DNA from: Eublepharis macularius
Lineage: Eukaryota; Chordata; Lepidosauria; Squamata; Eublepharidae
DNA length: 64,000 nt
Assembly: GCF_028583425.1 (NCBI RefSeq)
Contig: NC_072801.1
Location: 10,746,001 to 10,810,000, forward strand
Direction of reading: 5' to 3'
The notes under the pieces were generated by a model. It had not been told where the DNA came from. It did no database searches and saw only the letters and a list, made by a program, of their open reading frames with translations. The translations under genes were made by a program, and so were the position numbers. Positions within the stretch are counted from its first letter, which is position 1. Every line of letters starts with the position of its first letter. This document shows positions 18,955-61,748 of the stretch, piece after piece.

Positions 18955-19017
<63 letters not shown>

Positions 19018-38700: not shown

Positions 38701-38804
38701 CGTTGGGGCGTTCCCCTTGCCCTGCCCTGCCTCGCTCTCTCGCCTATAGCGGGACGAATTCCCTGTCTGACCCTGTTCCGTTTGTGAGGCTACTGAATTG
38801 TAAT

Positions 38805-38910: not shown

Positions 38911-38960
38911 GTAAAGAAAGACATTTTCAGAGCAGCACTTCTGGCAGCGTGGATGTGAGA

Positions 38961-39179
38961 TAGGGTTGCCAGCCTCCAGGTAGTGGCTGGAGATCTCCCG
39001 GAATTACAACTCGTTTCCAGGCCACAGAAATCAGTTCACCTGGAGAAAATGGCTACTTAAGGGGGTGGACTCTATGGAATTATGCCATGCCAAGGGCCTT
39101 TCCCTCCCCAAACCCCACTTTCTCCAGGTTTCACCCCCCAGCTCTCCAGGAATTTCCCAATTTGGAGCTGGCAACCCTA
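38961..39179. mobile_element. hAT-like MITE with perfect 8-bp TSD, copy 1
   Basis: 219 bases with terminal inverted repeats TAGGGTTGCC and GGCAACCCTA. The TSD ATGTGAGA lies at 38953-38960 and 39180-39187. An 8-bp TSD with such ends is the mark of hAT-type elements. There is no coding capacity. Nearly identical to 60164-60385. Confidence 0.85.
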
Positions 39180-39187
39180 ATGTGAGA

Positions 39188-39775: not shown

Positions 39776-42700
39776 GCAGCAGGCTAGAGTGTAACAGTCT
39801 CCCAACCATGAACCTGAAGTTAAGAGAGGGAATTTCTCACAGCTTTTAATGTTTGCAGAGTCCCTCAGTGGGACCTGAAGACACCAGCAATAGGGGACTG
39901 GAATCCATTTCCATCTCTTCATCTGATGTAGTTTGCAGTTTTGCAGACCACACACGTGTATGCCGAGTGAGAACATACTACAGTAATTTTGTTTTCCGCA
40001 TCATATAGGCATAAAAAAAAACAATACAGTCTGGTGGCATTTAAACCAGTCAAGGGCAAATTATTGCAACAGGATAAATACCACAGAAGGCCTTCAACAC
40101 CTGCCTTACTGCACAACAATGCAATCCTGTGGAGAGTGATTCTAATCTAAGACCATTGGCTGGAGCAGCAGCCTGTTATATTACGTACAGTATTATTTAT
40201 ACCCCACCTTTCTTCTATGATGGATTCCAGGCAGCTTCTAGTACTATCATTAAAAGTGTCTGGCACAAACATTAAAATAACTGGCTCAAACTATAAAGCT
40301 ACCAGGCCTCTCAGATACAAGTAGCAGCTCCTGATCCAAGGGACAAAGCTTTGGCATGCAGGCATATCTAAAGAGAGGAGCGACCTGCAGATATCCCATC
40401 CCTGGAAGGGTTTCAAAAGCAAATGCCAGGACCTCAGAAAAAGTAGACATTATCAAGATGTTCAAGCTTGGCATTTACAGAATTAAACAAGAAAGTCAGT
40501 CCCCTGGTTCCAGAGGAAAATTCAGTGATGTTTTAAAAGGCACTACGGAGTGGACCCAAATGTGGAGTGGGCATACATCTGCAAAAACAGAACTTTAAAA
40601 ATAAATTGGAACCAAGCAAAGCCCTTTTCCCAACATGTGAATAAAGGAAGTATTTGCAGGTTTTATTGTTTTTACTATTTTGTAGTTTTAAATGGGGTAG
40701 AATGATGGAGGCTAGCCTTTGGAACCCTGAAAGTCTCGTTTGGCCCAGCCCTCTAGCTGTTGAACCCCAATTCAACAGGGAGGCATGAACTACTTCCCCC
40801 GCTATCTAATGGGAACTGGGGCTCTGATCAAGCATCCCAGCACTCTCTTCCCAAGGGGTGCAAACCAGCATTCACATTGATGGCCTTATTCACCTAGGGT
40901 TACCAGCACAGGAGAAAGGAGCAACTTAGCACTGCATTGTGTCCTCAGTAAGAGCCTCCTCAGAATATAGGAGTTAGAGTTGATTATTTCAGCAGCAATT
41001 GCTTTCTTAAATACATTGCAGTAGCCATAAAGGTTAGAAACTTGCTCCCTTTATAAATTTAAGGAGCAATTTTTGTGTACATACATCAACAAAAAAAGCA
41101 GGCTTTTGTACCTCTGCAAAATCACAGCATAGAGCCCTGCGTTCAGTTCACCAACATTGCATTACTAAGCAGTTACACCCATCTAAAACTGATTTAGAAG
41201 TGTCAGTTTAAAAACCAAACATTAGCACACTTTCTCCCCTAAAGACAGACAACAAATGTGGCCACTAGGAGCAGCAGAACCACCCATGCAACCTTCCCAA
41301 ACCATGCAGGCCTTTTCACTTACAGAACTCTTGATATGGCAAAATAGCAAGAGAAATCGTTCCAGACCCATTTTTACCCTTCCCTTCCTCTAAAGAATTC
41401 AAGATGTCATACGTGGTTTCCCGAGTCTTCATTTTATCGTCACCCCAAGCCTATGATGCAGCAACAGGCACCGCTGAGGTTATCATGGCTGCTTGGCTAT
41501 TTGAACCAGTTTCTCCCATTTCTCACCCTCTTGCACTCACGGCCACCCTGCTGTAGATGGCAAATGTGGGCAATTTGCAAGTGTGTGTTAAAAACACACT
41601 TCTGCTCAGAGAGAGGACCTCTCTCAGCTATTTCCCCAACACTACAGCTTCAATTTTAAATATTTTAAAGATGCTGTCTCTCATCCGTGGAACAGCCTCA
41701 TGGAAGAGGCTTCTACCCTTATGGATTGCCACATTATTTCAGAGCACTTTTGGGACAGCCCGAGCACAGGAGAAATCTCCTCCTAGAAGTCAACTACTTT
41801 GTACAGAAAACTGCTTTGGCTAAACTCTTCTGCCAGTCAATACTTGCAGTTTTCAACAAAAAACCCCCAGCCTTATGAAATATAAACATTCTAGAACAGA
41901 AAGTGTGGACTCTCATGCTGTATCAAGATCAGGTTGTCTGGAAGTACAGGCTGCAATTCTGCAGCAGCAGGACTAAGCAGGTCTGACCACTGTAGCCTAC
42001 AGGATGGAAACCAGACAACAAAGCTCCTCTCTTCCAAGCTCCTTTGTTTAAAGAGCCAAGGCAGCCCCACCAGCAGAGCCACTTCTCTGAACTTCAGCTT
42101 GTTGGGCCAGATCACCTTCACACCTGCTTCAGCAAAATGCAAGATGCACACATGTACGGGCACCCCCCTCACACACACACACTTTCCCCAACTCTCGGAA
42201 GCTTGCACGTGACCCTAACTTCATTGCTTCCTTCTTCTGAAGGCAAAGAAATACCTAGACATTTCCTAGATTCAAAGAGCTCCCCCCCTTGCCCCAGGAC
42301 TGATGTGTTCTCCCATCAGCATGCTGAATGAAGCATTTCCTGTTGGTAACTTGTGTCTATTGCTTCATCATGGAGGGCTTTTTTGCAGTTCCAACCAAGG
42401 GATGGGGGTTTAAATACTTCAAGTGCTCCACTAGAACATACAGGCCTACAATATAAATGCCTGAAATCTTCCATATGGTCTTTTGAAATGCTAACTAGGA
42501 GACCACTTACCTTAGCTGAGTGCTTATGGACAGTGATTCCGCTATGGCTTTCATCCATCACCTGCTTCCAAATTATAATTGGATTATGATCTGGACCAGC
42601 CTCTCTTGAATTTACTAGTTCTAGGGTTTTACTTATAAGCAGGAGTAGCCGCATCACTGCAAGCTCACATTCCAGTCTCACAGCACTAGCCAATAAGCTT

Positions 42701-42954
42701 GCTGGCAGATGTGTGCTCTGGTAGAAGGGGCTGCGGGACAAGTATTGAATTATCCATGTCAGCAGGGTTCAGAAAGCTACGCTAGACTATTGTAAGCTGC
42801 CATACAAACTTCTACTGGGGTGTCAAAACCATACTGGCAGTGAAGGGCAAGCCCTTTACCAGTGGACTTCTCTGGTCTAATCCTTAATCTTTTAATCTTT
42901 CAAGTTTAAGATCTCCCCCCACCACCAAAAAACCAAATCAAACCAAACACCAGC
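39776..42954. other. Intergenic DNA between FBXL18 and ACTB
   Basis: No gene is seen. 40190-40330 has a LINE-tail-like phrase (ATTTATACCCCACCTTTCTT). 41650-41860 has a faint LINE-like phrase (CATCCGTGGAACAGCCTCAT). Otherwise it is non-repetitive. Frames of up to 141 codons (42316-42741, minus) show no known domain. Confidence 0.5.
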
Positions 42955-42975
42955 CAAATATCTATTGTGTGCATC

Positions 42976-42981
42976 TTTATT
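42976..42981 (-). terminator. ACTB: ACTB polyadenylation signal
   Basis: AATAAA on the minus strand in the conserved terminal block of the ACTB 3' UTR. Confidence 0.9.
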
Positions 42982-43615
42982 TAGAACTGTTCTTAAGTCA
43001 GTGTACAGTTTTGCCCCCCTCCGCCCCTGTATCCTGTGTACATACTGGCACCAATTTGGGTAAGGACTCCCCTATGGGATGAGAAGGGGGGGTAGACTGT
43101 AAGCCTTCACATCTAGAGATTGGGAAGAAGAGAAAACAGCCACAGCCCATTTTTTTTGCTTGACCAAAGAACAAAAAAAGAGAACCAAGTGTGTTTTGTT
43201 TTAAGGCGCAGGATACAGAAAGACACTTGTCGGGTTATATAATTTACATACAAGTAACATTTTTGCTAGGACACTCGATAGTTATTTCTTCTCCCTTTGA
43301 GCTGGGCTGCCGCCTTCATAGAGGCTGGTTTACCTTCCTCTCAATGCATTATACAATATTTGGAATGATTTAAAAAACAAAAGAAAAAAAACACAAATGT
43401 ACAATTAAAGTCCTCAGATGCATTGTAGAACTTGGGGGGGGGGGAGTTCGCTCCAACACTTTTTTTTTTTTAAAAGACTGCTGCCGTCAACTTTTCACCT
43501 TCCAGTTTTTATATCCTGAGTCAAGCGCCAAAAACACAAATAAAGCCATGCCCAATCTCAACTCTCGTTTTATGCGCAGTTAACGGGGGGATTTTTTTGT
43601 CAAAAGAGAGAAAAA

Positions 43616-43637
43616 ATGTTATCATGGTAACTAGTCC
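43616..43637 (-). promoter_or_regulatory. ACTB: Zipcode-like bipartite motif in ACTB 3' UTR
   Basis: Three bases after the stop codon the mRNA reads GGAC, then 14 bases, then ACAT. IGF2BP1 (ZBP1) binds the chicken and mammalian ACTB zipcode through a GGAC element spaced 10-15 bases from a CA-type element, at this same place. The ACACCC core of the mammalian zipcode is not visible, so this is a diverged candidate. Confidence 0.5.
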
Positions 43638-43640
43638 TTT

Positions 43641-46403
<2,763 letters not shown>

Positions 46404-46406
46404 TTA

Positions 46407-48252
46407 CTGGAAAAAAAGTCACACAATTGAAAAGTTTTGCTCCTTACACCCACAAGCACCGCCCATTAGCCCTTCCCGAATGAAGCAAGAAGAAATGCTG
46501 ATAAGGTGACAAGGCTGCTCTAGAAAGGGTCCAACCCCACCCACTTCCTCCCCAGGCATCTTGGGTTTCATCATCTCGGAGCACTTCCTGTTTTCAGCCA
46601 CTAGAGGGTGCACCCTGCATCTTGGTATGATTCGGGACAAAGGAAGTCCTCTGCTACACACTGTCCCATGTTATTACCATAAAAGGGAATGGTTCGAACA
46701 AGCTTTTGGAGGGTTTGATCAGAAAGGCCACGCCCTTCCCTCCATCCCGCCCCCTTCCTCCCAGAAAGCCCTGAGCATATGTCTGGGGGCCACTCCCCAA
46801 GCCCAGCGCAAAGAAAGCCCGGTCTAAAATCTGCACTGCAGGGAGGATGTTAACAGCCAAGAGCAGCTTCAAAATGAGGACCGGGTCACTCTGAGCCATG
46901 CCTTCCCTTCAAGGACTTGGCGCAGGTCCCCACCCTACTAAGAGTAGCTCTCCAGAACTTGTTACTCTTGTCTCACAAGTCAAGATTTTACATTAACCTG
47001 TTTTAAAAGCATCCCATTCTCAAGCATTTTTCCCTACTTGACAAGCTTGTTCCTCGTCACAGTTAGTGAGGACATTTCTAAAAGGAAATTGTACTTCTCT
47101 TTATTCCCCCTCCCTCTTGCCTTGCACTGGGATAGATGACCTGCACCATGCCAGTTTTAATATACATGGGCAGAGAGGGGAGAAGGCTAGAACAGAATTT
47201 CCCATGGTTTTATGGTGATAGGTTTTGGGGGGGCATCAACAAGGCACAGGAAAGCAGCAAGCTCTTCAAGGTTGTTGTTTTTTAAATGAGAATTCCCCTC
47301 CCTTGTAATCTTCCTTCACAGCCCCGCAGTCCTGAACTGTTTCTGGACCCATTTCCTAAAACCTGTTAGTCAACTGCCTTTAGGTTTCTCACTCCCATGA
47401 AACTCCCAACTGTTAAAGTGAATGTTGAGGAGGACTATGCCACCTGCCAGCAAAATACCTGCAGCTATGAGCTGGAATGATTCGCTGCCACTCCAGCAGG
47501 AAGCCTGCCAGCCGAGAGCGCGCAGGAGAAAAGCAACCACCGCCCCTCGAAGCACGGCTTCCAGGCCAGGCCTGAAGGCGAGCCATGCCTGCAAAGCCCC
47601 TTCCCTCCCCGCCTTCCCCACAGCCAAGGAAACAAAGACCCTCTGGGCGGTGGGAGGGGCAGCCCCTGGGCCCAAAGGCGCCGTCTTGATCGATTTTCTT
47701 CCCCGCCCCAGGAGGCGCCTCCCCTTCCCTCCTCCCCCATGTGCTCGGCACATACAATGAGCAATGCCGGCTCCAGCCCCCGGAAGCGGCTCCCCCCGGC
47801 ACACCCTGCCCTCCCCGCCTTTGAAGACCCGGGGGGGGGAGGAGAGGCGGACCCTGCTCGGGCTCCTCTTCTGCTAGCCACGGGCAGCGTGCAAAGCGAG
47901 GGGCCCCCCGCCCGCAAATCCTCTTAGGCGAGGGCCACGCCGAGCAAAAGCAGCTTAGCGAGCCCGGAAAGGCGGCAGCCCGACAAAAGCTTGTGCAGGC
48001 CGAGCGGACCGGGTGCGAATGCCAAGCCCCCCCCCCCTGCTTTCCGGTAGCCGAGAGACTGGCTGATGCCAGGCCTGCCTACGGGAGGGGGGGGTCTCCT
48101 CTACCTGCCTCCGCACCGCTTGCAAAACTTCGCAACGCGCCGTAGGAGTTGGCGAGGCAATTATGAGCAAATGAGAGAATCGCCCTCCGGTGCTCGCTGG
48201 TGCGCTGGCAACCAGGCGCCCGAGCAGCGCGTGCATGAGAGCCCCAGAAACC

Positions 48253-48286
<34 letters not shown>

Positions 48287-48729
48287 CAACTGCAGCCTTA
48301 ATGCTGTTTGCTGAAGAATACAGCCCCGTTTTTACCCCAACATTAAGTCCCACGGACTTCAACCGAAGGCTCAGCTCTCTGCCACTAGAGCCTGGGGATA
48401 AACGCCACCCTCTAAGGCTAACCACTTACAGGACCGGCCTAGAAACATCATCTCCCATCACTACCCGCCATTCTAGCCGGTGGTCAATCTCCCTTTGCAG
48501 CGCCCCACTCATTCCAACAGGCTTACTCCAGAGAAAGCAAACACGAGATTATGCTACTCACGTTTTTCGGATGGACGGGAAATTAAAACCGATCCAAGAA
48601 ATCCCCCAAAGGCACGCAATAACAGTGAAAAGCAACTGCGCTCAAGAAGCACAACGAATAAAAAGAAATCACCCCCAGCCCCTCTTGTGCTATCGATTTG
48701 TTGCAACGCATACACGCGTAAACGCCTAC
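46407..48729 (-). other. ACTB: ACTB intron 1 and CpG island
   Basis: About 2.3 kb. The part from about 47470 to the promoter is strongly GC- and CpG-rich and continuous with the promoter island (to about 48960). Long open frames here in both directions are by-products of the base composition. A (TG)n microsatellite of about 30 bases lies at 48253-48282. Apart from the CArG box at 46677 I see no other discrete element. Confidence 0.8.
46677..46686 (-). promoter_or_regulatory. ACTB: Second CArG box (SRF site) in ACTB intron 1
   Basis: CCTTTTATGG on the minus strand, the same ten bases as the promoter CArG box, 270 bases upstream of exon 2. ETS-type cores (GGAAG) lie about 30 bases away near 46640 and 46583. 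An intron-1 enhancer with a CArG element is known in mammalian ACTB, which supports function here. Confidence 0.7.
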
Positions 48730-48850
48730 CTTTGAAAAGTTGCAAGTTCGGGAAAATCTGCTTTTAAACCCTTTGGGGCGGGGAGGCGAGGCGGCGGCCT
48801 GAGATCCACCCGGTGCACACAGACGGCGGGCGGCGAGCTTAACGGCTAGT
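48730..48850 (-). other. ACTB: ACTB non-coding exon 1
   Basis: Vertebrate ACTB has an untranslated first exon. Here the start is placed about 25-30 bases downstream of the TATA box (near 48850) and the end at the first good donor, CAAAG|GTAGGC at 48730. The exon is GC-rich at its 5' part. Its exact ends are inferred; transcript data would settle them. Confidence 0.7.
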
Positions 48851-48873
48851 TCCTCCTGCGCAGCGCCGCCGGG

Positions 48874-48942
48874 TTTTATAGGAGCGCCGCGGCGGAGCTC
48901 TCGCCATAAAAGGCAACTTTCGAAACGGGCCCTCCTGATTGG
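48874..48942 (-). promoter_or_regulatory. ACTB: ACTB core promoter: CCAAT, CArG and TATA boxes
   Basis: Reading on the minus strand: CCAAT at 48942-48938, the SRF site CCTTTTATGG at 48913-48904, and TATAAAA at 48880-48874. The order and spacing are those of human and chicken ACTB, and the stretch CGAAAGTTGCCTTTTATGG appears identical to the human promoter. SRF at the CArG box couples ACTB transcription to serum and to the G-actin/MRTF signal. Confidence 0.95.
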
Positions 48943-50336
48943 CCGGGCCCCGCTCACTCACTCACGAGTCGCGCTCTGCACATTGCAGCATTTCCCCCCC
49001 CCTTGCAAAAAAAAAAAAAGGGTGAGTGGGGGAAGGGCACCTTCTTCCTTCTTCCTCTTCTTTTTGCATTGGGTTGTTGTCATGGGCGCAGTTTCTGCTC
49101 CTTTTTTCCCGTTTTGCAAAAAGACGGGGCCACATCTGACCGAGAGATGCAGGGCTTGAACTGCATGGGTAACATAAACAGATTTTCTGGCAGCGCCCGG
49201 CCTGCTCCCCTTCGCTCTTTCTCCCTCCTTCCCCAAATGTGTGTGTGCGGTGACCCCCCCCCCCACCCCCACCCCGGCCTACTCTCCACAGCCAGCAGGA
49301 ACCTCGCTGTTTGATCTCCTGACCTGGTCCCCCTCGCTCTCTCCGGCACGCGCATCCTTCCCAGCAGCGTTGTCCCAATTCAGAAATCATTTGGGGAGAC
49401 ACTTCCAGAACACAGACCCGAAGGAATAAGTCCCATTGAACTGAACGGGGTTTTTCTTAGTGAACACGCTTCTTGGGATCGTGGACTAGAAGCTCAATTT
49501 TCTCCAGGCTTTGGGGGGATTCGGTCCCGCAGGACTCTGTGGGCCTTTTGCTTTGGATCAAACTTCCATAGCGTGCCAGAGCCAAATTACATGCGAGGGG
49601 GCTTATTCAGAGCAAACCTCCAGAGGCCCAGCCTCTCAATGCTTCACACAGTTGTCCATTGTGTTCTATGCAAATAGCAGCCAGACTTTACTCCAAAGTA
49701 CCATTGGGCACACATACTAAGGGCTGTGAGTCCCGCCAAACACAAGTGTGTGCATGTGGAAGACTGCAGCCCCGCATCCCGACCCTGGGCTCCATTACTC
49801 AGAAGGAAGTCCCACCATTCAGTGGGGCATTCTTCTAAGAAAGGCTGTCATCTGAGCCCCCATGCTTAGCCTTGTGCTGTAACAGCACCCTCCCCCCATC
49901 TCCCCTGCAATATCCGTTGAGTCAATCAGTAGCACCAAATGCAATGGAATTTGCTCCCAGGCTAAATGTGGAGAAGGATGCAATCTTGAGTGTTCCTTTT
50001 GCATTCAAGGCCATCTGACAAAGATACCTTGCCACAGCCCAGACCCAAGCGAGATGATCATTAGACAGGTCTGTCGGTGAGAGCAGCTACAGCACATTGC
50101 CTCAGAGGCCCTGGTAGCATTCCCTTCAACTAACCTCTGCATCTGCAGCCAAAATATACCAGATCGGAGATGACACATCCAACATGTTAATTAATTACAG
50201 GCTCACCAGATTTAAAAATTCAGAAAACTCAAAGGTTGTTGCTTTCTCTTGCAGGCATGGGGGGAAGGGGCTGACTCACACGGTTCCACGCATCTGAGAT
50301 GTTCTGAAAGGAGACAACATCTCTTCAAATAGTGAA

Positions 50337-50470
50337 GAGTCCAGTAGCACCATGGTAGCGTAAGCTTTCGAGAACCGATGCATCTGAAGAAGAGAGCTGT
50401 GGTTCTTGAAAGCTTACGCTACCATAAAGTTGGTTAGTCTTAAAGGTGCTACTGGACTCTTTACTATCTC
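50337..50470 (+). mobile_element. Penelope-derived foldback
   Basis: Arms AGAGTCCAGTAGCACC... and ...GGTGCTACTGGACTCT enclose a copy of the pLTR end. CTGAAGA (50384-50390), a GAGAG/TTCTT stem and GAAA (50408-50411) follow the hammerhead-core pattern. Confidence 0.7.
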
Positions 50471-50569
50471 TGATGGAGACTTTCGGCACCCAGAACTGAA
50501 GGTCTCAGTTGTACCAATGTATAAGTAAATAATAAGACTATTGGCAAAGGAACTTGGCAGCTGAGGGAG

Positions 50570-50766
50570 GGTCCATGGATCACTGTCAGAAAAACATCTG
50601 GTTTGCATGCAGAAAGTCCCAGGTTCGATCCCCTGCCTCTCCAGTTCAAAAAGATTAGAAGAACGACTTCTCTGCCTATGCCCTTGAACGCTGCTGCCCA
50701 TCTGAATAGAAAATACTGACTTTGATAAGCCAAGGGTCTGATCCAGTATAAGGCAGTTTCACATGA
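50570..50766 (+). repeat. tRNA-derived SINE, near full length
   Basis: TTGCATGCAGAAAGTCCCAG, GTTCGATCCCCTGCCTCTCC (B-box), then AATACTGACTTTGATAAGCC and GTCTGATCCAGTATAAGGCA. Confidence 0.8.
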
Positions 50767-50952
50767 AGAATGAGATTGTGGTTCCAAACAGTGGCATAGG
50801 GTTGGGCTCCAGGTTGGGAAATTCTGGGACATTTGGTGGGGGTGGGGGTTGGAGCCTGGTGGGGTTTGCAGAGGGGAAGAACCTCAGTGGGGTAATCCAC
50901 CCTCCAAAGCAGCGTTTTCTCCAGAGGAGCAGATCTCTGTGGCATGGAGAGC

Positions 50953-51540
50953 ATAGAATCATAGGATTGGAAGGGATCTCTAGAGTCATCTAGTCCAACC
51001 CCCTGCACAATGCAGGAAATTCACAACTATCTCCCCTCCCACACTTCCCCAGTGTCCCCTACTCCATGCCCAGAAGATGGCAAAACACCTCCAGGATCCC
51101 TAGCCAAACTGGCCTGGGGAAACATAAGAACATAAGAACATAAGCAAAGCCATGTTGGATCAGGCCAGTGGCCCATCCAGTCCAACATTCTGTCACACAC
51201 AGTGGCTAGAAATCCAGTGCCATCTAAAGGACTGTCAGTGAGGCCAGGACACCAGAAGCCCTCCCACTGCCTTCCTTCCAGCACCAAGACAACAGAGCAC
51301 CACCTCCCCACAAAGAGAATAAATTGCTACCTGACCCCAAGGTGGTGACTGGCCTTACCCTGGGCATGTAAGAAGGGGCCGCGAGAACTAAGCACGGATG
51401 TAACCCATTCTGCCCTCCCTCTCAGGATCTGCCCGGGTTCACAGAATCAGCATTGCTGTCAGATGGCCATCAAGCCTCTGCTTTAAAACCTCCAAAGAAG
51501 GAGAGCCCACCACCTCCCGAGGATGATCAGTTGTAATTCT
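50953..51540 (-). mobile_element. CR1 3' region with a second CR1 3' end inserted
   Basis: Reverse CR1 3' end from ATAGAATCATAGGATTGGAA to CTAGCCAAACTGGCCTGGGG. It is broken at about 51120 by a (AAGAACAT)n tail with GCCATGTTGGATCAGGCCAG, a different CR1 3' end in the same orientation (to about 51310). After the break the first one continues (AAAACCTCCAAAGAAGGAGA). Confidence 0.7.
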
Positions 51541-51580
51541 GGGAATCTCAGTCACCACCTGGAGGCTGGCAACCCTGTTA
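51525..51580 (-). repeat. MITE end fragment (TAGGGTTGCC family)
   Basis: TTGTAATTCTGGGAATCTCA, then CCACCTGGAGGCTGGCAACC, is the reversed 5' part of the family at 38961. Confidence 0.55.
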
Positions 51581-51857
51581 GACACCTTCTGCCCACGTGA
51601 CTCTCAGGGATGTTTCCTCCACTAGGGGGTTAAAAGAGATGGAGAACGCCAGTTTTGGAATTTCCTATAAACAGACAAGATTAGAAAGGACTGGAAAAGC
51701 AAAGAGGGGACTATGGGAAAGCAAAGTACTGGGCAAGCAGCGACCAACCCAGGTTTCTTGCTGGAACTAGACTAGACTTGGCAACCAGTCTCCTCACCAG
51801 TCCTTAACCTTATTCCCTAACAACTAGGGTTGTTGGCATCGTTACAGAGATAATTAT

Positions 51858-51925
51858 TTCATTCATTCATTCATTCATAGTCCTCCTTTCTCATTGAGGC
51901 TCAAGGTGGATTACACAGTATAAGT
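51858..51925 (-). repeat. (ATTC)n and LINE tail
   Basis: Four to five ATTC units followed by ATAGTCCTCCTTTCTCATTG and TGGATTACACAGTATA, as at 20283. Confidence 0.65.
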
Positions 51926-52952
51926 CAATATGATAAACTGCTGGGACATTCAATAAACTATACAATAGGTATAGATTGCAGAAATTTGTAAAGAAGCAGA
52001 AACCTGATACACAGCTAAAACAATGTTGAAACAAAATATAAGCAATTGGACAGGACATGATAAATGACAGTAACAGACAGTGCACAGTAATATGGTACAC
52101 AGTTCCTCTCCCTTTACTGAAGCATCTCTTTGAACCATTGCCTGTACCCCTTAAAATGCTTGAAATGTGCTACATAAATGCTAAGACACGTTGTTGTTAC
52201 TGTTATTACTATTATTTCCACCCATATTCTAAGGCAAAACCTGCCTGGAATCCACTGAGTAAATTTAATAGGGCCCGAAAGGTATTTGCTCCGAGCCCAA
52301 ACTGTAATTAAATAAACTTGTACAAATTCTTGATGGATAGTCATCAAGATCTGGTAGCTGACCAAAATAATTTTTAGCCTGCTATCAATGACCTCTGGCA
52401 GCCCTAGAATGCAAGTTACTTATTTTATGCCTTTTTTCCTGGTTGATAAGATCTCAGTAGAAAGTTAAACAATACCAGTTACTGTCTTTGGCTAATTTGC
52501 AGACCCAAAACAGCTAACATACTATGTCCAGCCATTCACCCGGTACAGGTCTGTCTTTTTCACCACAGGATTAGCAAGCCATCTTTCATGTTCAGATAAA
52601 AGGCAGTTACAAATAAACACCCATCTTAACTTTTTACGGTGGGGAAACTATGAACTTAATCCTACAAGATTTGATGCATGATTTTCAGAAACTTAAAAGA
52701 GAGTTTAGCTTCCACATCACACATGACCCTATGACAATTTTTGTGTCTTCTTGCTAGAATTCACAGAATCTCAGTTTAAGTTTTAAAAAGAGGTATTTCT
52801 AGTCATTAGAGATGCTCAAATAAATTTAGAAAAGGCTAAAAAAAAATGGAAACTTTGTTTTCAGAAACAAAGTCCTCCTAAATGTGTTCTTTCGGTCTTC
52901 TAGAGTTTTAATTCGGAGCTCGGAGACCATTTGCGGTCAGAAGAGACCTGTC

Positions 52953-53190
52953 CGGGGCTTTTTTTCTGGGCAAAGAGGTGGTAGAACTCCGTGGGTTGCC
53001 CTCGGAGAAAATGGTCACATGGCTGGTGGCCCCGCCCCCTGATCTCCAGACAGAGGGGAGTTTAGATTGCCCTCCGCGCCGCCGAGCGGCGCAGAGGGCA
53101 ATCTCAACTCCCCTCTGTCTGGAGATCAGGGGGCGGGGCCACCAGCCATGTGACCATTTTCAAGAGGTTCTGGAACTCTGTTTCGTTACA
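52953..53190. mobile_element. Foldback MITE F1, copy 1 (right end degraded)
   Basis: Starts CGGGGCTTTTTTTCTGGG. The long inner arms (ATGGTCACATGGCTGGTGGC and CCCCGCCCCCTGATCTCCAG with their complements) meet near 53087. The right outer part is diverged, so its end and TSD are unclear (GACCTGTC versus GACCTGAT). Confidence 0.7.
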
Positions 53191-53552
53191 TTTGATTTTC
53201 AGGAATGCGGAGACCTGATTTGGACTGGGACCGGGATGACGTTACATGGATAGAAGAGACTTATGTCTCCAACCCATCTGCTGACCTGGAATGAGGGGCA
53301 GAACAGAGATGTTTCAGGAGCATTCCTGCTTGCTTCGTAGCATCTTGTCTGAGCTTTTCTTTCCCTTCCTGGATGGGACCAGGAGTTCTTGGTCCTTAGC
53401 CTGTGGCTTGCAGCCTGCAGCCTTGAGTGAGCTGACTGCTGGATCCAGGAAGAATGCAGAATGTACTCCCCCCCCCCCGGTTGTTCATTAACTTACATTT
53501 TGTAAGCTACTTTTGTTCCTGATTGGGAAGAAAAATGGAGTAGTAAGATAAT

Positions 53553-53762
53553 GGCCGTTTCCACACGGCTTACCTGAAGCCGGGCCATGGCGCAACGTTG
53601 CGGATCATGCCGGGGAAAACGCGAAATATTGGGTTTTCTCGCGAGTTTTGCGCAACGTCGCACAAAACTCGTGCGAGAAAACATGGTATTTCGCGTTTTC
53701 CCCAGCATGATCCGCAACATTGCGCCATGGCCCGGCTTCAGGTAAGCCATGTGGAAACGGCC
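53553..53762. mobile_element. 210-bp near-perfect palindrome, MITE-like
   Basis: Arms starting GGCCGTTTCCACA and ending GTGGAAACGGCC are complementary over almost their entire length (for example GGGCCATGGCGCAACGTTGC versus its complement at 53715-53734). Flanking AAT on both sides could be a 3-bp TSD. It is CpG-rich and has no coding capacity. Distinct from the F1 family. Confidence 0.75.
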
Positions 53763-54005
53763 AATAATAACAACAGCATTCAATTTATATACTGCCCATG
53801 ACAACTTAACACCCACTCAGAGCGGTTTACAAAGTGTGAGATTCTTATCCTCACTACAATTACCCTATGAGGTGGGTGGGGCTGAGAGAGCTCTAAAGGA
53901 GCTGTGGCTGACCCAAGGCCACCAAGCTGGCTTCAAGCGGAGGAGTGGGGAATCAAACCCGGTTCTCTAGATTAGAGTCCTGCCGCTCTTAGCCACTACC
54001 CCAAA
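53763..54005 (-). repeat. tRNA-derived SINE
   Basis: From a TTATTGTTGTT-like tail (ATAATAACAACAGC on plus) through CACTCAGAGCGGTTTACAAA to the head complement TTAGCCACTACCCCAAACTG. Confidence 0.8.
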
Positions 54006-54205
54006 CTGGCTCATCTTATCCTGGGCTCATCAGAGCTTGAGAGCTATGCAGAGTTGTCCAAGGTCAGTGCTTGAATGGGAGACCACCAAGGAAGACTGGG
54101 GGAGGCAATAGAAACCCATCTTTGCTCTTCTCTTGCCTGGAACGTCCCATAGGTGGCATCACCATGAGTCCGTAGCGACTTGAAGGCATGTTCTTCTTCA
54201 AATAC
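54006..54205 (+). mobile_element. 5S rRNA-derived SINE (SINE3-like)
   Basis: The head reads TCAGAGCTTGAGAGCTATGC, then GTCAGTGCTTGAATGGGAGA, CC, the internal promoter region of 5S rRNA. The body GCTCTTCTCTTGCCTGGAAC and the Bov-B-like tail GTCCGTAGCGACTTGAAGGC follow. This is the structure of 5S-derived SINEs. Confidence 0.75.
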
Positions 54206-54226
54206 GATAAAAAAAATTTAAAAGCC

Positions 54227-54398
54227 AGACAGGCAGAGGTTCTGCCTGCAGAAGGCCTACGTTTCAGTTTCAGTTTCTGGAATATCCAGTTAGAGGATCT
54301 CAGCCGTTAGGAAAGATATTTCCCGGCCTAAGACCTTGGAGAGCATCCCCATCGGCTAGACAAGAAAATGGGCTGATGGCAGTTGCTTTTTTTCCAAG
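54227..54398 (+). repeat. Degraded tRNA-derived SINE
   Basis: CTGCCTGCAGAAGGCCTACG, AATATCCAGTTAGAGGATCT, TAAGACCTTGGAGAGCATCC. F1 copy 2 inserted at its 3' side. Confidence 0.55.
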
Positions 54399-54406
54399 CT
54401 CTTATG

Positions 54407-54666
54407 CAGGACTTTTTTTCTGGGAAAAGAGGTGGTGGAACTCAGTGGGTTGCCCTCTGAGAAAATGGTCACATGGCTGGTGGCCCCACCCCCTGATTTC
54501 CAGACAGAGGAGAGTTTAGATTCCCCTCCGCGCTGCTCAGCGGCATGGAGGGCAATCTCAACTCCCCTCTGCCTGGAGATCAGGGGGCGGGGCCACCAGC
54601 CATGTGACCATTTTCAAGAGGTTCCGGAACTCCGTTCCACCGCATTCCAGCTGAAAAAAAGCCCTG
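54407..54666. mobile_element. Foldback MITE F1, copy 2, perfect 8-bp TSD
   Basis: Starts CAGGACTTTTTTTCTGGG, ends GAAAAAAAGCCCTG. TSD CTCTTATG at 54399-54406 and 54667-54674. Inner arms pair over about 70 bases. Confidence 0.9.
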
Positions 54667-55565
54667 CTCTTATGTATGCAATGCTTTTCAAACACATACT
54701 TATCCTATAGGATCGGAATGCTCTGGAAAGTTGGGTACCCTCTGAAAAGAAGGACCATGTGGCAGAGCCACTTCCTGAGGAGCCAGAATCCCAGCATCAC
54801 AATTTTTAGAAAACTAAAATAATATTTTGTTTGAAAAAGGAGGCCACAGAAGGTCACTCATTATAATGAGAAACAAACCATCAGGCTGGTGTCTGACTTC
54901 CTGAATCTCCAGCCTTGGGTAATAAGGAATGGGGCCTGGTGGATCGATGTGGAGAGGGATTGGGGCTGGTGGTGCCCCCAGGGTGGCACACAGAGCCCTG
55001 CTGTGCCTGCTGGCTGAGGAGTCCCAGTGGACCTGGCAGCAAAATTATTTTCAAGCCAAGCCAAGCCAAAAACAGCACTTCTCCTGGGTTCGTGCCTTAT
55101 GCCAGGGCCAGGGGAAAGGGTTGGCACAATAGGACACTTGTCAAGACCTCCAACCTGACAGAGGCCCCACTGCCAGCCAGTGATGCTTGGTCGTCTGCTC
55201 TTGGCAGGAAATGATGTCATAAGGGCTTCTGGGCAGTATACTTTTTCCTGCTGGAAGAAGCACCAGAAAGGTAGGGTCCATCTCTTTTGGACACCTTTTG
55301 GCCCTACCACATGGTTGGTTGGTTTATCTATTTATTTGGGAGAATTTATCTGCTGCATCTCCAGAGCCTGCTCAACTAAAACAATAAACAACTAAAACAA
55401 TAAAAACCCAACCCAACAACAAAAACTAGTCAATAAAAACACACAGCAGGGTGTGAAAGCAGCATAAAACAAACTGAGCAGTCTGAGACATTACAGTGAT
55501 AAAACAGTCGTCAGAGCAGACCACAAAACAGCTAAAAAAGATAAAATCTCTTGAAAAGTCAGGCA

Positions 55566-55815
55566 AAATAACAACAACAACATTTGATTTATATACTGCC
55601 CTTCAGAACAACTTAATCCCCACTCAGAGCGGTTTACAAAGTATGCCATTATTACCCCCTCAACAAAACATCCTGTGAGGTGGGTGGGGCTGAGAGAGCT
55701 CCAGAGAGCTGCCCAAGGTCACCCAGCTGGCTTCAAGTGGAGGAGAGGGGAATCAAATCTGGCTCTCCAGAGTAGAGTCCCACGCTCTTAACCACTACAC
55801 CAATCTGGCTCTCAA
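55566..55815 (-). repeat. tRNA-derived SINE
   Basis: AACAACAACAACATTTGATT tail side, CCACTCAGAGCGGTTTACAA, GTGAGGTGGGTGGGGCTGAG, and head complement CTTAACCACTACACC. Confidence 0.8.
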
Positions 55816-56321
55816 GGGAGTACATTTCTGCTTCCCGATGGCAACTTCCCCTCCAACACTCTCAATATTCTGTCCTTCCCCTGTTAGGAAAGACACTGGG
55901 CGACCGTGTTTCCTCCTCCTGCTTCGGCAATGCTGAGGTCAGCAGCTTGGGCCTATCCTGCCAGAAGCCGCAACATCTACAGAGAGGACCAAGAGCAAAC
56001 GCAAGAAATGAGAGTAAAATTGAATGAGGCCCTGCCGCAAGTGTGGGGAAAAGCCCTGCCTCACATAACCACCTACCACTCTTTGGATGGCACGGAAGCA
56101 TGACGCTGGGCCTCTTTGGTGTGCAGGTGGGAGAAGTCCCTTGACGTGTGCTTGGTCCTGCATCATTTATGGCATCAAAAGTCAAAGCCACCCCATTGGG
56201 GACAAACTGCCTGGTGAGTAGTGAAGGAAGCCCAGTAACATCTCCATTGCCCAAAAACCAGGGCCCTAACTCCTGATCTCTGAGGGGCCAGGATGCCTGC
56301 CCGTGGGTCTAGCGCCAGTAG

Positions 56322-56530
56322 GGTGTAGTGATTTGCCCGTTGGGACTTGGAAGTCCTGGATCCAATCCTCACTCAACCACAATGTTCGCTGGGTGATCTT
56401 GGGCCCATCACTCTCTCCCTCTCAGCCTAACCCACCTTACAGGGTTGTTGTGAGGAGAAAGTGGGGGAGGGGAGAGTCAAACATGCTGCCCTGAGCATCC
56501 CAGAGGAGAGGCAGGATTATGATGCGTTGC
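56322..56530 (+). repeat. tRNA-derived SINE
   Basis: GGGTGTAGTGATTTGCCCGT, TCCTCACTCAACCACAATGT, CTCAGCCTAACCCACCTTAC, GGGTTGTTGTGAGGAGAAAG. Confidence 0.7.
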
Positions 56531-57208
56531 AGGGAGGCAGCAGGCTGAGAATCTGGTCTTAAAAGTGAAAGCGTAGAGTGATCCAGAACCCAAAAACTCT
56601 TCCCCCCCTTTCCAAATGTCTGCAATAATTACACAGTTCAAGCAACAAGGGGGAGCCCACTGGCAATTTCTGGAAGAGGAACAGAACGGGAAGCCACAGG
56701 CTTCTTCTACCGCATGTTCCAGGCAAAGGCAACAGCCCCGGCCCCTGCCCCCCCCGCCTTGCACAGAGCTCAGCTGCTCAGTGGTTTCCTGTTTCCTCCT
56801 TCTTCTTCTCTGCAAGAACAGAGGAACACCAACATCAGTTGGCCAACCAGGGTTGCAACCTTTTGTTTCCATTTAAGGCATTCTTCCTGGATGGGGCAGG
56901 AAACGGGCCCTCGATTAGACATTGCAAAAGGTCTCCTGTTCTGTAGAGATGTGCTCCGAAATGGGGGATGGGGAAGAATGGAGGATCAATGGCTCAAAAC
57001 AGAAGGACCCGTGGGAGACTCTGCCTCCCCCCCCCCCAAGGATGCATCTTCACCACAAACATGGGCTGCTTGCATCCTCAAATGGCTGCATATTGACTAG
57101 AGTTGCGCTATAGCAAACACTCGCCTACTGGATTGGCTGCTTCCACCTTGGAAAATGCAGTTGCCAGTGAAGGAAATCTGACTGCGAATTCTCACCAAAC
57201 CTCTAACC

Positions 57209-57463
57209 CAGGGGGTTTTTTTCTGGGAAAAGAGGTGCTGGAACTCAGTGGGTTGCCCTTGGAGAAAATGGTCACATGGCTGGTGGCCCCACCCCCTGAT
57301 CTCCAGACAGAGGGGAGTTTAGAGTGCCCGCCGCGCAGTGGCGCAGAGGGCAATCTAAACTCCCCTCTGTCTGGAGATCAGGGGGCGGGGCCACCAGCCA
57401 TGTGACCATTTTAAGAGGTTCCAGAACTCCGTTCCACCGCGTTCCAGCTGAAAAAAAGCCCTG
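57209..57463. mobile_element. Foldback MITE F1, copy 3, 8-bp TSD with one mismatch
   Basis: Starts CAGGGGGTTTTTTTCTGGG, ends GAAAAAAAGCCCTG. TSD CTCTAACC (57201-57208) and CTCTCACC (57464-57471). Confidence 0.85.
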
Positions 57464-57732
57464 CTCTCACCAAACGACAGTTCCCAATAAGCTTAAGGGG
57501 AAGCCATGACAGATAACTGATATAAAACTGGATCCGATTTGAAATGGAGATATACGCTGTTTAGCTGCAGCAGAAAAAAAATGTACTGCATCCGTCTGTC
57601 ACATTTTAATCTCAAGGTAGGTATATGATTGTGGACATAAGAAGGGCTTTCAGGATGACACCAGTGGCCTATATATCCTGGTGCCATTTCCCACTGTGCC
57701 CAACCACATGCCCTGTTAGGTTTTGTTCCTAA

Positions 57733-58955
57733 CAGATCCTGCCAGACGAACCTAGTTTCCTTCTTTGATTGAGTGACCAGCTTACTGGATCGGGGGAACT
57801 CTGTTGACGTGATTTATCTGGATTTCAGTAAAGCTTTTGATAAGGTCCCCCATGACATTCTGATGGGCAAACTGGAAGACTGTGGAGTAGACTATAGGAC
57901 AGTTCGGTGGATAGGGAACTGGTTGGAGGACCGCACTCAAAGAGTGGTGGTCAACGGCGTTTCATCAGATTGGAGGGAGGTGTCCAGTGGGGTGCCGCAG
58001 GGCTCGGTTTTGGGCCCGGTACTTTTCAATATTTTTATCAATGATCTGGATGAAGGAGTGGAAGGGCTGCTCATTAAATTTGCTGATGATACCAAATTGG
58101 GAGGGGTAGCAAACACCCAAGAAGACAGAATTAAAATTCAACAAGACCTGAATACTCTGGAGAAGTGGGCAGCTGTGAATAGGATGCAATTCAACAAAGA
58201 CAAGTGCACAGTATTACATCTGGGCCACAAAAATGAGAAGCACAAATACTGGATGGGGGATACACTTCTGGGCAGTAGTATATGTGAAAGGGATCTTGGG
58301 GTAAGAGTGGACTGTAAACTGAATATGAGCAGTCAGTGTGATGTGGTGGCAAAAAAGGCTAATTCAATCCTGGGTTGTATCAAAGGGGCCATAGCATCAA
58401 AATTGCAGGAGGTCATAGCCCCTCTCTATACTGCCTTGGTCAGGCCACACCTGGAGTATTGTGTGCAGTTCTGGAGGCCTCACTTCAAAAAGGATGTGGA
58501 CAAAATCGAGAGGGTGCAGAGGAGAGCAACAAGGATAATCAGGGGTCTGGAGACTGAGCCCTATGAGGAAAGGCTGAGGGCCTTGGGAATGTTTAGTTTG
58601 GAGAAGAGGAGGTTGAGGGGGGACATGATTGCTCTCTTTAAATATTTGAAAGGCTGTCATTTGGAGGAGGGCAGGGAGCTGTTCCAGTTGGCAGCAGAGG
58701 GTAGGACGCGAAGCAATGGGCTAAAACTACATGCACAAAGGTACCGACTGGATATTAGGAAGAACTTTTTCACGGTCAGAGTAGTTCAAAAGTGGAATCA
58801 GCTGCCTAGGGAGGTGGTGAGCTCCCCCTCACTGGCAGTTTTCAAGAAGAGGCTGGATGAATTCTTGTCAGAGATGTTTTAGGCTGATCCTGCACTGGGC
58901 AGGGGGTTGGACTAGATGGTCTGTATGGCCCCTTCCAACTCTATGATTCTATGCC
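57733..58955 (+). mobile_element. CR1 LINE, 5'-truncated, open frame and intact 3' end
   Basis: Holds an open 369-codon reverse-transcriptase frame and a 3' UTR (GGCTGATCCTGCACTGGGCA) ending in two units of the 8-base CR1 tail (CTCTATGATTCTATG). 5' truncation is usual for LINEs. The open frame and intact tail suggest a young copy. Confidence 0.9.
57773..58882 (+). CDS. CR1 reverse transcriptase, C-terminal half of ORF2
   Basis: The frame begins within the reverse transcriptase (VDVIYLDFSKAFDKVPH, the first catalytic aspartate). It includes SSGVPQGSVLGPVLFNIFIN and the active-site FADDTKLGG, then LEKWAAVNRMQFNKDKC, the VRPHLEYCVQFWRPHF region, VQRRATRII and the end FKKRLDEFLSEMF. The endonuclease and early palm are missing, so the initial ATG is not a true start. 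It is open throughout, in contrast to the older CR1 copy at 18430. It would reverse transcribe its own RNA only if supplied with the missing part. Confidence 0.9.
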   Translation: MTSLLDRGNSVDVIYLDFSKAFDKVPHDILMGKLEDCGVDYRTVRWIGNWLEDRTQRVVVNGVSSDWREVSSGVPQGSVLGPVLFNIFINDLDEGVEGLLIKFADDTKLGGVANTQEDRIKIQQDLNTLEKWAAVNRMQFNKDKCTVLHLGHKNEKHKYWMGDTLLGSSICERDLGVRVDCKLNMSSQCDVVAKKANSILGCIKGAIASKLQEVIAPLYTALVRPHLEYCVQFWRPHFKKDVDKIERVQRRATRIIRGLETEPYEERLRALGMFSLEKRRLRGDMIALFKYLKGCHLEEGRELFQLAAEGRTRSNGLKLHAQRYRLDIRKNFFTVRVVQKWNQLPREVVSSPSLAVFKKRLDEFLSEMF

Positions 58956-59620
58956 CCAAGCGAAGGGGCACAGACCCTAAAACCGCTCCGTCAGTTTTAT
59001 ACCCCATTCATCCTGCTGAGAGAAACCTCTCGCTGGCTGACGAGCTGCTACCAATCACAGCAGGCAATACTGTGCTAAAAAGGACGGATCATATGACTGT
59101 ATATGGTAGTTTCATACCTAGGCTCAGATGCTTACGTCCACCCGCATGTACAACGCAGAACGTGTTTAACTTCTCATCCAAGCTCTCGCTTCCTCTCTTG
59201 ACATATTTTACTAGAATAACCTGCTCCTGGAATTATGGTTTTCTGAATGCATTTAGACGATCTGGTTGAGCTGGTCATAAAACAACAGCGGGCGTGAGGG
59301 AAATCAGCTGAACTTGTATTCAGGTTGGCCTTTGGGTGACACAAAACCAGGTCAAGCTCCCATTTAATCCGGCCGCTGTAAGGCAGAACTCGAACGCTAC
59401 TGTACCAGGGCCTTTCAAAGTACCAGACTCGAAGTCCTCTGCTAAATCACCCAAGATATAAATTGAACAATTGACTTGGCATTGTTTTCTGTGGCCTACT
59501 TTCATCTCCCTCTGTGGCACATTTCCCAGAATGAGAAGAAGGTGGAGAGATTTATAAAGTGTGGCTGTTTGGTTAAAAAAAAATTGCAATGGCAAACGTG
59601 GATCCAGAAAGACTCCTGAG

Positions 59621-59864
59621 CAGGGCTTTTTTTCAGGGGGAATGCGGGAGAACGGAGTTCTGGAACCTCTTGGAAATGGTCACATGGCTGGTGGCTCCGC
59701 CCCCCTGATCTCCAGACAGAGGGGAGTTGAGATTGACCGCGCGGAGGGCAATCTCAACTCCCCTCTGTTTGGAGATCAGGGGGCGGGGCCACCAGCCATG
59801 TGACCATTTTCTCTGAGGGCAACCCACTGAGGGCACCACCTCTTTTCCCAGAAAAAAAGCCGTG
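59621..59864. mobile_element. Foldback MITE F1, copy 4, inverted, perfect 8-bp TSD
   Basis: Starts CAGGGCTTTTTTTCAGGGG, ends CAGAAAAAAAGCCGTG. TSD CTCCTGAG at 59613-59620 and 59865-59872. The outer asymmetric parts show it lies in opposite orientation to the other copies. Confidence 0.9.
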
Positions 59865-60163
59865 CTCCTGAGAAACTTGGTGGATGCCGTTGCTATTATT
59901 AATGAATTACTTTGCAGGGCACAGCACTGTCGGGGGGGGGGGGAAGAAAGCTGGGGCTGAGTACCAGTACGAAAGGGCTACCTCCTATCTTCTGTTTTGA
60001 GCCCCTTCCCCCACAGCCGTAAGAAATATGTTACTCCCCCCCCTCCATGCTTTACAAAGTAACAAAGGCCCTTGCCCCCAGAGGTTTACAATCAACATTT
60101 AAGGGAGAAGTTAAACACATAGAGAAAAGGAAAGAAAATCCTACAGTGAGGCAGGGCCCCTCC

Positions 60164-60385
60164 TAGGGTTGCCAGTCTCCAGGTAGTGGCTGGAGAACTC
60201 CCAGTATAACAACCAGTCTCCAGGCCACAGAGATCAGTTCACCTGGAGAAAATGGCTACTTTAGGGGGTGGACTCTATGGAATTATGCCATGCCAAGGGC
60301 CTTTCCCTCCCCAAACCCCACTTTCTCCAGGTTTCACCCCCCCCCAGACCTCCAGGAATTTCCCAACTTGGAGCTGGCAACCCTA
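60164..60385. mobile_element. hAT-like MITE with perfect 8-bp TSD, copy 2
   Basis: 222 bases, TAGGGTTGCC to GGCAACCCTA. TSD GCCCCTCC at 60156-60163 and 60386-60393. Most of it matches 38961-39179 (for example TGGAATTATGCCATGCCAAG in both). Confidence 0.9.
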
Positions 60386-60809
60386 GCCCCTCCAGGTGTC
60401 AATTCACTTGGTTCCCATGTTTGGGAGATGGAGGCAGAGGGCGGCAGATCCTAGTTTAGAATGCTGTTTTTAAATGTTCTTACAAATAGAATGTAAGCCG
60501 AGAGAAGCCAAGAGAAAGGGAAGGGTCACCTCCGCTCCCCTCTTTCCCTGTTGTGCAGTGGTGTGTGGGGGTTTTTTTATGCAAAGGAACATTAAAAACT
60601 GACTTGCTCCACCCATTCTCTGAAGTGGCACTATCCAGTTTTTTACTTCATTCTTTTTGACTGCGTGATCAGCCACTTTTTGGTCAAAGGGGCCGGCTCA
60701 CGGCTTCACAGAAAAGGCGTGTTTCTATCAAAAGTCTGTTAAACTCCTAAGCACTTTGGGACGGGGGTATATAAAAAGGGCCTCTTCCTGGATCACTCGG
60801 CTTGCCAGT

Positions 60810-60943
60810 TAAGAATCTCAAGCCCTGCGCTCCGTACCCCCTTAGGTATTCAACAGAGACAGGGCCTTTTCAGTGGTGAGGCCTGGCCTTAGGAATTTCT
60901 CCCTCTTGAGTTCTGCCCTGCTGTCATTCAGGCATTAGGCTAA
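60810..60943 (+). repeat. Possible LINE (L2/CR1-like) 3' fragment
   Basis: GACAGGGCCTTTTCAGTGGT and CATTCAGGCATTAGGCTAAA resemble the 3' part of reptile LINEs that lies just before the tail. Confidence 0.4.
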
Positions 60944-61322
60944 AACAAACGCTTGAATCAAAAGCCTGTTTACTCCAGGCTTTTGATTCCGATGCTATCC
61001 CGCCTTGTCAGGTGTCTGCTTTTATTTTCTGGCCTGTATCCCACCCAATTCTTGACACACTTAAAATGATTTTATATTGCCTTTACTTGCTGGTGATGTT
61101 ATGATTGCTAGACGGAGACTATTTTCTTGCTGGTGGGGTCGTTGCATGCCGTTTCAGTGTGGTTTTGAATTTTGTTTTTACTTCGTTATTAATCGCCTGA
61201 AGCAAGTTGCTGGAGAGACAGCATGCAGATCTTCTAAATGAATGCATGGTTCTTCTGGGCGGGAGGTTCAGGCATAGGGAGGCCACAGCAAGAGAAAGCA
61301 AGACGCAGGAGCTGCCGGAGCT
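60944..61322 (+). repeat. 379-bp repeat, left member of an inverted pair
   Basis: AACAAACGCTTGAATCAAAA to CAGGAGCTGCCGGAGCT. Its reverse complement, of equal length and with only scattered differences, is at 62955-63333. A 14-bp hairpin (60955-60968 with 60976-60989) lies near its outer end in both copies. Family not recognised. Confidence 0.8.
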
Positions 61323-61492
61323 GCCCCGTGCAGTGAATCACCAGGGATATTCCCTAATGTGTTGAAGTGTTGCTGGGCTCCCCTCACCCAAGCGGACCAT
61401 TGCGTATTTCTGACCAGGAAGTCCTAAAATGTTTTCCCAGTCAGGTGCAGATTTGCCTCTTGCATGTCTTATATCTGACTCTTGCTTACTAC

Positions 61493-61748
61493 CAGGGCTT
61501 TTTTTCTGGGAAAAGAGGTGGTGGAACTCAGTGGGTTGCCCTCGGAGAAAATGGTCACATGGCCGGTGGCCCCGCCCCCTGATCTCCAGACAGAGGGGAG
61601 TTTTAGATTGCCCTCCGCGCGGTAGCGCAGAGGGCAATCTAAACTCCCCTCTATCTGGAGATCAGGGGGCGGGGCCACCGGCCATGTGACCATTTTCAAA
61701 AGGTTCCGGAACTCCGTTCCACCGCGTTCCTGCTGAAAAAAAGCCCTG
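61493..61748. mobile_element. Foldback MITE F1, copy 5, perfect 8-bp TSD
   Basis: Starts CAGGGCTTTTTTTCTGGG, ends GAAAAAAAGCCCTG. TSD CTTACTAC at 61485-61492 and 61749-61756. Both arms carry a CCGG in place of the CTGG found in the other copies. Confidence 0.9.

What the first reader, a model, noticed from the sequence alone, without database searches (positions are those of the whole stretch)
52953..61748. Cluster of five palindromic foldback transposons in 9 kb
Five copies of a 240-260-bp element (F1) lie at 52953, 54407, 57209, 59621 and 61493. Each folds into a stem of about 70 near-perfect pairs with short outer pairing ends CAGGGCTTTTTTTC. Three have perfect 8-bp TSDs, one has a single mismatch and one has a degraded end, so they are separate hAT-like insertions and not a tandem duplication. 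None is seen in the other 55 kb. Local clustering of a hairpin-forming MITE upstream of ACTB could reflect local hopping, open germline chromatin, or a fragile-site preference.
Basis: partly seen in the sequence, partly recalled or inferred. Interest (0 to 1): 0.72.

Follow-up and report, generated by a model that had tools for sequence, protein, structure and literature searches.

The report
Common hairpin transposon near chromosome ends
The five hairpin-shaped elements beside a lizard-like animal's beta-actin gene are real and inserted independently, but they belong to a family with tens of thousands of copies, so the apparent 9-kb cluster is the edge of a copy-rich chromosome region and not a local hotspot.

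Summary
No other copy was found in the window. They are non-autonomous hAT-type foldback MITEs. The cluster reading fails. The 2.24-Gb assembly holds 43,841 right-end matches (up to 2 mismatches; 10,100 exact; controls zero). The surrounding 264 kb hold about 43 copies, and 4 of 39 five-copy runs, this one included, span 8.8 kb or less. Unusual is a 56.8-kb copy-free gap over FBXL18-ACTB, which made the rest look clustered. Local density is still 6.2-7.5 times the genome mean, but over the whole 264 kb. Well-kept copies lie away from chromosome middles: 3 of 56 listed exact 68-mers in the middle thirds of C1 and C2, against 31 of 59 hAT-transposase domains; ACTB sits 10.8 Mb from an end. By-product: the two arms of one copy resemble each other more than arms of different copies. 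No autonomous partner was found in the 12 loci examined.

The parts
52953..53208 (+). Foldback MITE copy 1; left end CGGGGCTTTTTTTC; right tip degraded, apparently an inverted piece of the right end; probable TSD GAGACCTG (left 52943-52950, right 53210-53217)
54407..54666 (+). Foldback MITE copy 2, TSD CTCTTATG 8/8 (54399-54406 and 54667-54674)
57209..57463 (+). Foldback MITE copy 3, TSD CTCTAACC/CTCTCACC 7/8
59621..59864 (-). Foldback MITE copy 4, reverse orientation, hairpin tip 16 bp shorter than in copy 1, TSD CTCCTGAG 8/8
61493..61748 (+). Foldback MITE copy 5, TSD CTTACTAC 8/8, DNA fold z -20.4
1..52952 (.). Stretch without a detected copy: window part of a 56.8-kb gap (C12:10742297-10799082, centre to centre) over FBXL18 and ACTB

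Best explanation
The five elements are ordinary members of one abundant, non-autonomous hAT-superfamily MITE family in a 2.24-Gb vertebrate genome (squamate by recall of its other repeats). Each was inserted on its own by a hAT transposase supplied in trans, which recognised the 14-bp ends and probably the shared subterminal motifs, and left an 8-bp duplication (shown: ends, TSDs, unrelated flanks; inferred: the transposase and its binding). The core is an inverted duplication of about 70 bp in place of a coding interior (shown: structure; inferred: origin by internal deletion with template switching). The five look clustered because the window's other 53 kb lie in a copy-free gap over FBXL18-ACTB, while both flanks are as dense as the 'cluster'. 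The whole region is dense because the family accumulates away from chromosome middles, probably by insertion or retention in gene-rich, high-recombination chromatin (inferred).
For: 43,841 right-end matches at up to 2 mismatches and 10,100 exact, both strands nearly equal, reversed-pattern control 0. About 43 copies in 264 kb, on both sides of the window. Of 51 element rows in the 264 kb plus seven other loci, 27 have perfect 8-bp TSDs (27 different sequences) and 35 at least 7/8. In the body of the element (alignment columns 10-231) the five copies carry 4, 4, 4, 7 and 4 private changes (homogeneity p=0.82), and one of the four shared-variant columns is outside CpG context, so they are of like age with no parent-daughter chain visible. 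Position: 0 of 33 and 3 of 23 listed exact 68-mers in the middle thirds of C1 and C2; 17 of 20 usable best hits lie within 20 Mb of an end, 5.8 expected; hAT-transposase domains behave otherwise, 31 of 59 in the middle thirds. In the green anole, hAT density rises with recombination rate and the authors infer preferential insertion (PMC7561263, passages incl. parts of the abstract).
Against: Local density is still 6.2-7.5 times the genome mean, so a regional cause is needed. With element ends included the private changes are uneven (16, 5, 5, 9, 4), mainly through copy 1's degraded tip. The positional bias rests on exact or best-scoring copies, on listings of the first 100 places, and on two to six contigs of known length; the very ends are not enriched in the data seen: no exact 23-mer in the first 4.7 Mb of C1 and no exact 68-mer in its first 22.5 Mb. 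A control with a CpG-decayed pattern did not complete. Given only the window, five of five in 8.8 kb has p=0.0016 under uniformity.
Confidence: 0.88

Rival explanations
1. Local hopping: one copy landed upstream of ACTB and its descendants reinserted within 9 kb.
For: [quoted passage not shown] Copies 3 and 5 share a hairpin-loop deletion and one arm state and are the most alike pair, 94.1%.
Against: Like numbers of private changes in the body and one shared non-CpG column; equal density outside the 9 kb; reported local-hop ranges (about 100 kb for P, 5-15 Mb for Sleeping Beauty, 5 cM for Ac) are far wider than 9 kb.
Confidence: 0.05
2. The telling feature is the gap, not the cluster: insertions into the FBXL18-ACTB block were removed by selection or never happened.
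For: The largest gap among 43 copies in 264 kb is 56.8 kb, P=0.00125 under uniformity, and it covers FBXL18 and ACTB and some 4 kb beyond the inferred ACTB promoter.
Against: One gap chosen after looking; copies need not be uniform; a second gap of 26 kb exists; genes in the flanks were not mapped; other repeats are present inside the gap.
Confidence: 0.35
3. The distal bias is an artefact of searching for undecayed copies: exact matches survive where CpG decay is slow.
For: The 68-mer pattern and the scored hits favour well-kept copies. The very ends of C1 are not enriched.
Against: The 264-kb enrichment is much the same for exact (7.5-fold) and 2-mismatch matches (6.2-fold).
Confidence: 0.2
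4. Segmental or tandem duplication of one insertion.
For: Spacing of 1.5-2.8 kb looks fairly regular.
Against: Different TSDs, non-homologous flanks, one copy inverted.
Confidence: 0.01

Closest known systems
hAT-superfamily MITEs (e.g. Mar of Drosophila, PMC3517528; passages seen)
   Same: 8-bp TSDs, short terminal inverted repeats beginning CAG, no coding capacity
   Different: TSDs do not carry the Buster centre TA of Mar (1 of 27); a palindrome with 70-bp arms fills the interior; tens of thousands of copies
Foldback / hairpin MITEs of vertebrates (Angel of zebrafish, MADE1 of primates; recalled, no call)
   Same: Short non-autonomous elements that are almost wholly inverted repeat
   Different: Here the palindrome sits inside separate hAT ends that pair only in part; superfamily and sequence differ (recalled)
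hAT elements of the green anole (PMC7561263; passages seen)
   Same: hAT density correlates with recombination; authors infer preferential insertion and an ancient burst
   Different: That study pools hAT insertions; here one MITE family avoids chromosome middles while the transposase-domain places examined do not

Membership tests
hAT superfamily (non-autonomous member) | 8-bp target-site duplication | tested here: met
   27 of 51 rows perfect, 35 of 51 at least 7/8, offsets at most 1; only 8-mers were scored
hAT superfamily (non-autonomous member) | Short terminal inverted repeats (5-27 bp) in an element under 4 kb (definition from PMC3517528 passages) | tested here: met
   14-bp CAGGGCTTTTTTTC, 244-260 bp in the window
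hAT superfamily (non-autonomous member) | Mobilised by a hAT transposase; an autonomous copy with the same ends exists | tested here: inconclusive
   12 of 150 scored PF05699 places (4145 candidates) were fetched with 1.5 kb either side; 0 of 12 carry the ends; far ends of a full-length element could lie beyond 1.5 kb
Buster family of hAT | TSD nnnTAnnn | tested here: not met
   TA at positions 4-5 in 1 of 27 perfect TSDs
Ac family of hAT | TSD nTnnnnAn (recalled) | tested here: inconclusive
   T at position 2 in 17 of 27, A at position 7 in 11 of 27, both in 6 of 27
MITE | Short, non-coding, inverted ends, high copy number | tested here: met
   244-260 bp and 43,841 right-end matches genome-wide
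Foldback element | Long inverted repeats able to fold into one hairpin | tested here: met
   Arms match at 62-68 of 69-70 positions, z=-20.4 for copy 5

The most novel reading that the evidence does not exclude
One hAT foldback MITE family marks the outer zones of large chromosomes and leaves central deserts (no listed exact 68-mer in 133 Mb of C1), unlike hAT-transposase remains in the same genome. In addition its short hairpin arms evolve in concert: a change in one arm is copied to the other, as if mispairs in an extruded 70-bp hairpin were repaired. Support: mismatch between arms within a copy 4.1% against 5.1% between copies, 0 of 5000 shuffles as low (35 copies); 29 short copies alone 3.65 against 4.36%, p 0.00025; without the three commonest polymorphic sites p 0.017 for the short form and 0.00075 for all 35; not significant for the 6 long copies, p 0.17.
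Probability: 0.35. Interest if true: 0.5.

Novelty: new member of a known kind. Interest (0 to 1): 0.27.

Why it matters
It removes a claimed hotspot near ACTB and shows how a single 64-kb window can mislead: the absence was the unusual part. If the end-weighted map and the arm-to-arm correction hold, the family is a ready set of tens of thousands of independently inserted short palindromes for measuring insertion preference along such chromosomes and hairpin-directed repair in a vertebrate germline.

Tried and rejected
Local hopping, tandem duplication and a 9-kb hotspot were tested and set aside. A run of about 39 same-strand hits on C1 in the listing looked remarkable but came from an incomplete list: one search shows both strands there. 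Searches of viral contigs and genome contigs for element DNA found nothing; the tool warns that records of this genome may be left out there. Rfam (gathering threshold) and tRNA scans of the window found nothing. Literature: the string CAGGGCTTTTTTTC occurs in no held paper; in the listings no title or abstract start describes this family, and one search listed nothing. Passages only were seen of PMC3517528, PMC10379679, PMC3606216, PMC11872487, PMC8225341 and PMC7561263, and passages plus one section of PMC3016246. Repbase and Dfam could not be consulted, so the family may well be catalogued there. An autonomous partner was sought in 12 loci only. With the five window copies alone arm homogenisation was not visible (mean mismatch 6.0% within, 6.8% between left and right arms, 5.5% between left arms). 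Before the genome answered I considered that the excess might be explained by intergenic space (p 0.19-0.31) and by general repeat richness at 49-64 kb (p 0.022); the genome data supersede both.
Full report
OBSERVATION. Five related elements lie at 52953-53208, 54407-54666, 57209-57463, 59621-59864 (reverse) and 61493-61748. They are 87.0-94.1% identical pairwise and 92.0-96.1% to their majority sequence. Eight of their ten ends match CAGGGCTTTTTTTC with at most 2 mismatches; copy 3's left end has an extra base and copy 1's right end is degraded. Each has a left part of about 55 bp, a core of two inverted arms, and a right part of about 50 bp. Left and right parts share GGTGGAAC in inverted and AAGAGGT...GGAACTC in direct orientation. 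The arms match at 62-68 of 69-70 positions; copy 5 as DNA folds at -122.8 kcal/mol, z=-20.4. Apex loops differ: relative to copy 1, 16 bp are missing in copy 4 and 5 bp in copies 3 and 5. nhmmer at full sensitivity gives nothing else in the window below E=2.

INDEPENDENT INSERTIONS. TSDs are CTCTTATG, CTCCTGAG, CTTACTAC (8/8), CTCTAACC/CTCTCACC (7/8), and for copy 1 probably GAGACCTG (8/8 at small offsets; 0.75% of 4000 random placements do as well). Flanks of 600 bp share only short matches, best E 0.01. Sequence just beyond copy 1's readable right end matches an inverted piece of the normal right end (a score reached by 0.08% of 2,569 random window pieces).

GENES. Beta-actin motifs lie at 43677-46391 on the minus strand, and a 520-aa open frame at 32662-34221 minus is FBXL18 (Pfam 2.4e-251).

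THE CLUSTER TEST. The window is G000:C12:10746001-10810000 in an assembly of 2,236,738,225 bases and 72 contigs. The right-end 23-mer has 10,100 exact matches and 43,841 with up to 2 mismatches, with none in the reversed control. In the 264 kb made of the window and 100 kb either side the same pattern gives 9 and 32, and a profile search gives 43 copies, so the 2-mismatch pattern sees roughly three in four; by that rate the genome holds on the order of 60,000 copies (inference). Local density is 7.5-fold (exact) or 6.2-fold (2 mismatches) the genome mean. So the 9-kb group is unremarkable for its neighbourhood. What is unusual is the empty stretch of 56.8 kb over FBXL18 and ACTB (P=0.00125 for so large a gap under uniformity; chosen after the fact).

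WHY THE NEIGHBOURHOOD IS DENSE. A 68-base exact pattern occurs 382 times. Of the 100 places listed, 33 are on C1, 23 on C2, 20 on C3, 23 on C4 and 1 on C5; the lengths of C1 and C2 are known, and 0 of 33 and 3 of 23 fall in their middle thirds. C1 has none listed between 55.5 and 189.0 Mb; the largest gaps on C3 and C4 are 66 and 72 Mb. Of the 40 scored places, I used 20 (left out: the window's own copy and 19 on contigs of unknown length); 17 lie within 20 Mb of an end, 5.8 expected. As a contrast, of 150 scored hAT dimerisation domains (4145 candidates) 59 are on C1 or C2 and 31 of these are in the middle thirds (Fisher p 1e-8). ACTB lies 10.8 Mb from an end of C12 (81.1 Mb). Limits: well-kept copies only, listings of first places, few contigs; the first 4.7 Mb of C1 hold no exact 23-mer although 21 would be expected at the genome mean, and no exact 68-mer is listed in its first 22.5 Mb, so the bias is away from the middles and not to the very tips. 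The anole study (PMC7561263, passages) reports a positive correlation of hAT density with recombination rate and infers preferential insertion plus an ancient burst; Tol2 (a hAT element by recall) is reported to prefer sites near transcription starts (PMC3016246, passages). I infer the same kind of cause here.

FAMILY STRUCTURE. In 51 element rows (42 from the 264 kb, 9 from seven other loci; one row holds two copies and a few longer rows may be chains) there are short forms of 236-270 bp, long forms of about 296-330 bp in most of which the left end and core are parted by extra sequence, one form of 103 bp with both ends and no hairpin (C12:10646293, TSD 8/8), and a 173-bp form whose match to the family profile lacks the left arm (C12:10663377, TSD 8/8). 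Perfect TSDs: 27 of 51, all 27 different; at least 7/8: 35 of 51. T at position 2 in 17 of 27 and A at position 7 in 11 of 27; TA in the centre in 1 of 27, which speaks against the Buster type and leans to the Ac type (Ac consensus recalled).

AGE. In alignment columns 10-231 the five window copies carry 4, 4, 4, 7 and 4 private changes (p=0.82 for homogeneity); with the ends included the counts are 16, 5, 5, 9 and 4, mostly because copy 1's tip is degraded. One of four shared-variant columns in the body is outside CpG context.

ARMS EVOLVE TOGETHER. In 35 copies with both arms readable, arms of one copy differ at 4.1% of sites, left and right arms of different copies at 5.1%; 0 of 5000 shuffles are as low. 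For 29 short copies 3.65 against 4.36%, p 0.00025; with the three commonest variable sites removed p 0.017 (all 35 copies: 0.00075); for 6 long copies p 0.17. In the window, copy 5 has the same change in both arms, and one site reads T/G in copies 1 and 2, T/T in 3 and 5, G/G in 4. Inherited subfamilies may explain part of this; repair of mispairs in an extruded hairpin would explain the rest. With only the five window copies the effect is not visible.

VERDICT. Real elements, correct superfamily, wrong reading of scale. An abundant hAT foldback MITE, with two modest leads (end-weighted map, arm-to-arm correction) that need the full copy set.

Noticed in passing
53549-53766: A second foldback without similarity to the five: 94-nt arms, 91% complementary, 30-nt spacer, ends GGCCGTTTCCACACGG, AAT on both sides, between copies 1 and 2.
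   Followed up: partly
60944-61322 and 62955-63333: Inverted pair of 379 nt at 95%, with copy 5 between the arms; no TSD seen by eye at the outer ends.
   Followed up: partly
13361-13532, 28466-28640, 50356-50465, 62364-62419, 15013-16067: Related repeats, several inverted, mostly with a CTTTCGAGAATC / GGTGCTACTGGACTC type tail; Penelope-like by recall; the 1-kb unit at 15013-16067 has inverted ends of about 215 bp.
   Followed up: partly
57773-58879: Open 369-aa reverse-transcriptase frame (Pfam RVT_1 1.3e-25), a truncated CR1-like LINE by recall.
   Followed up: partly
5131-5323, 22118-22359, 53763-54012, 55567-55811: A dispersed repeat of about 190-250 bp, 79-84% identical, inside and outside the 53-kb gap, which shows that the gap is not closed to all repeats.
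   Followed up: partly
C1:22.57-35.96 Mb of G000: Eleven successive listed exact copies on one strand, five of them within 235 kb; a duplication or a listing effect.
   Followed up: no
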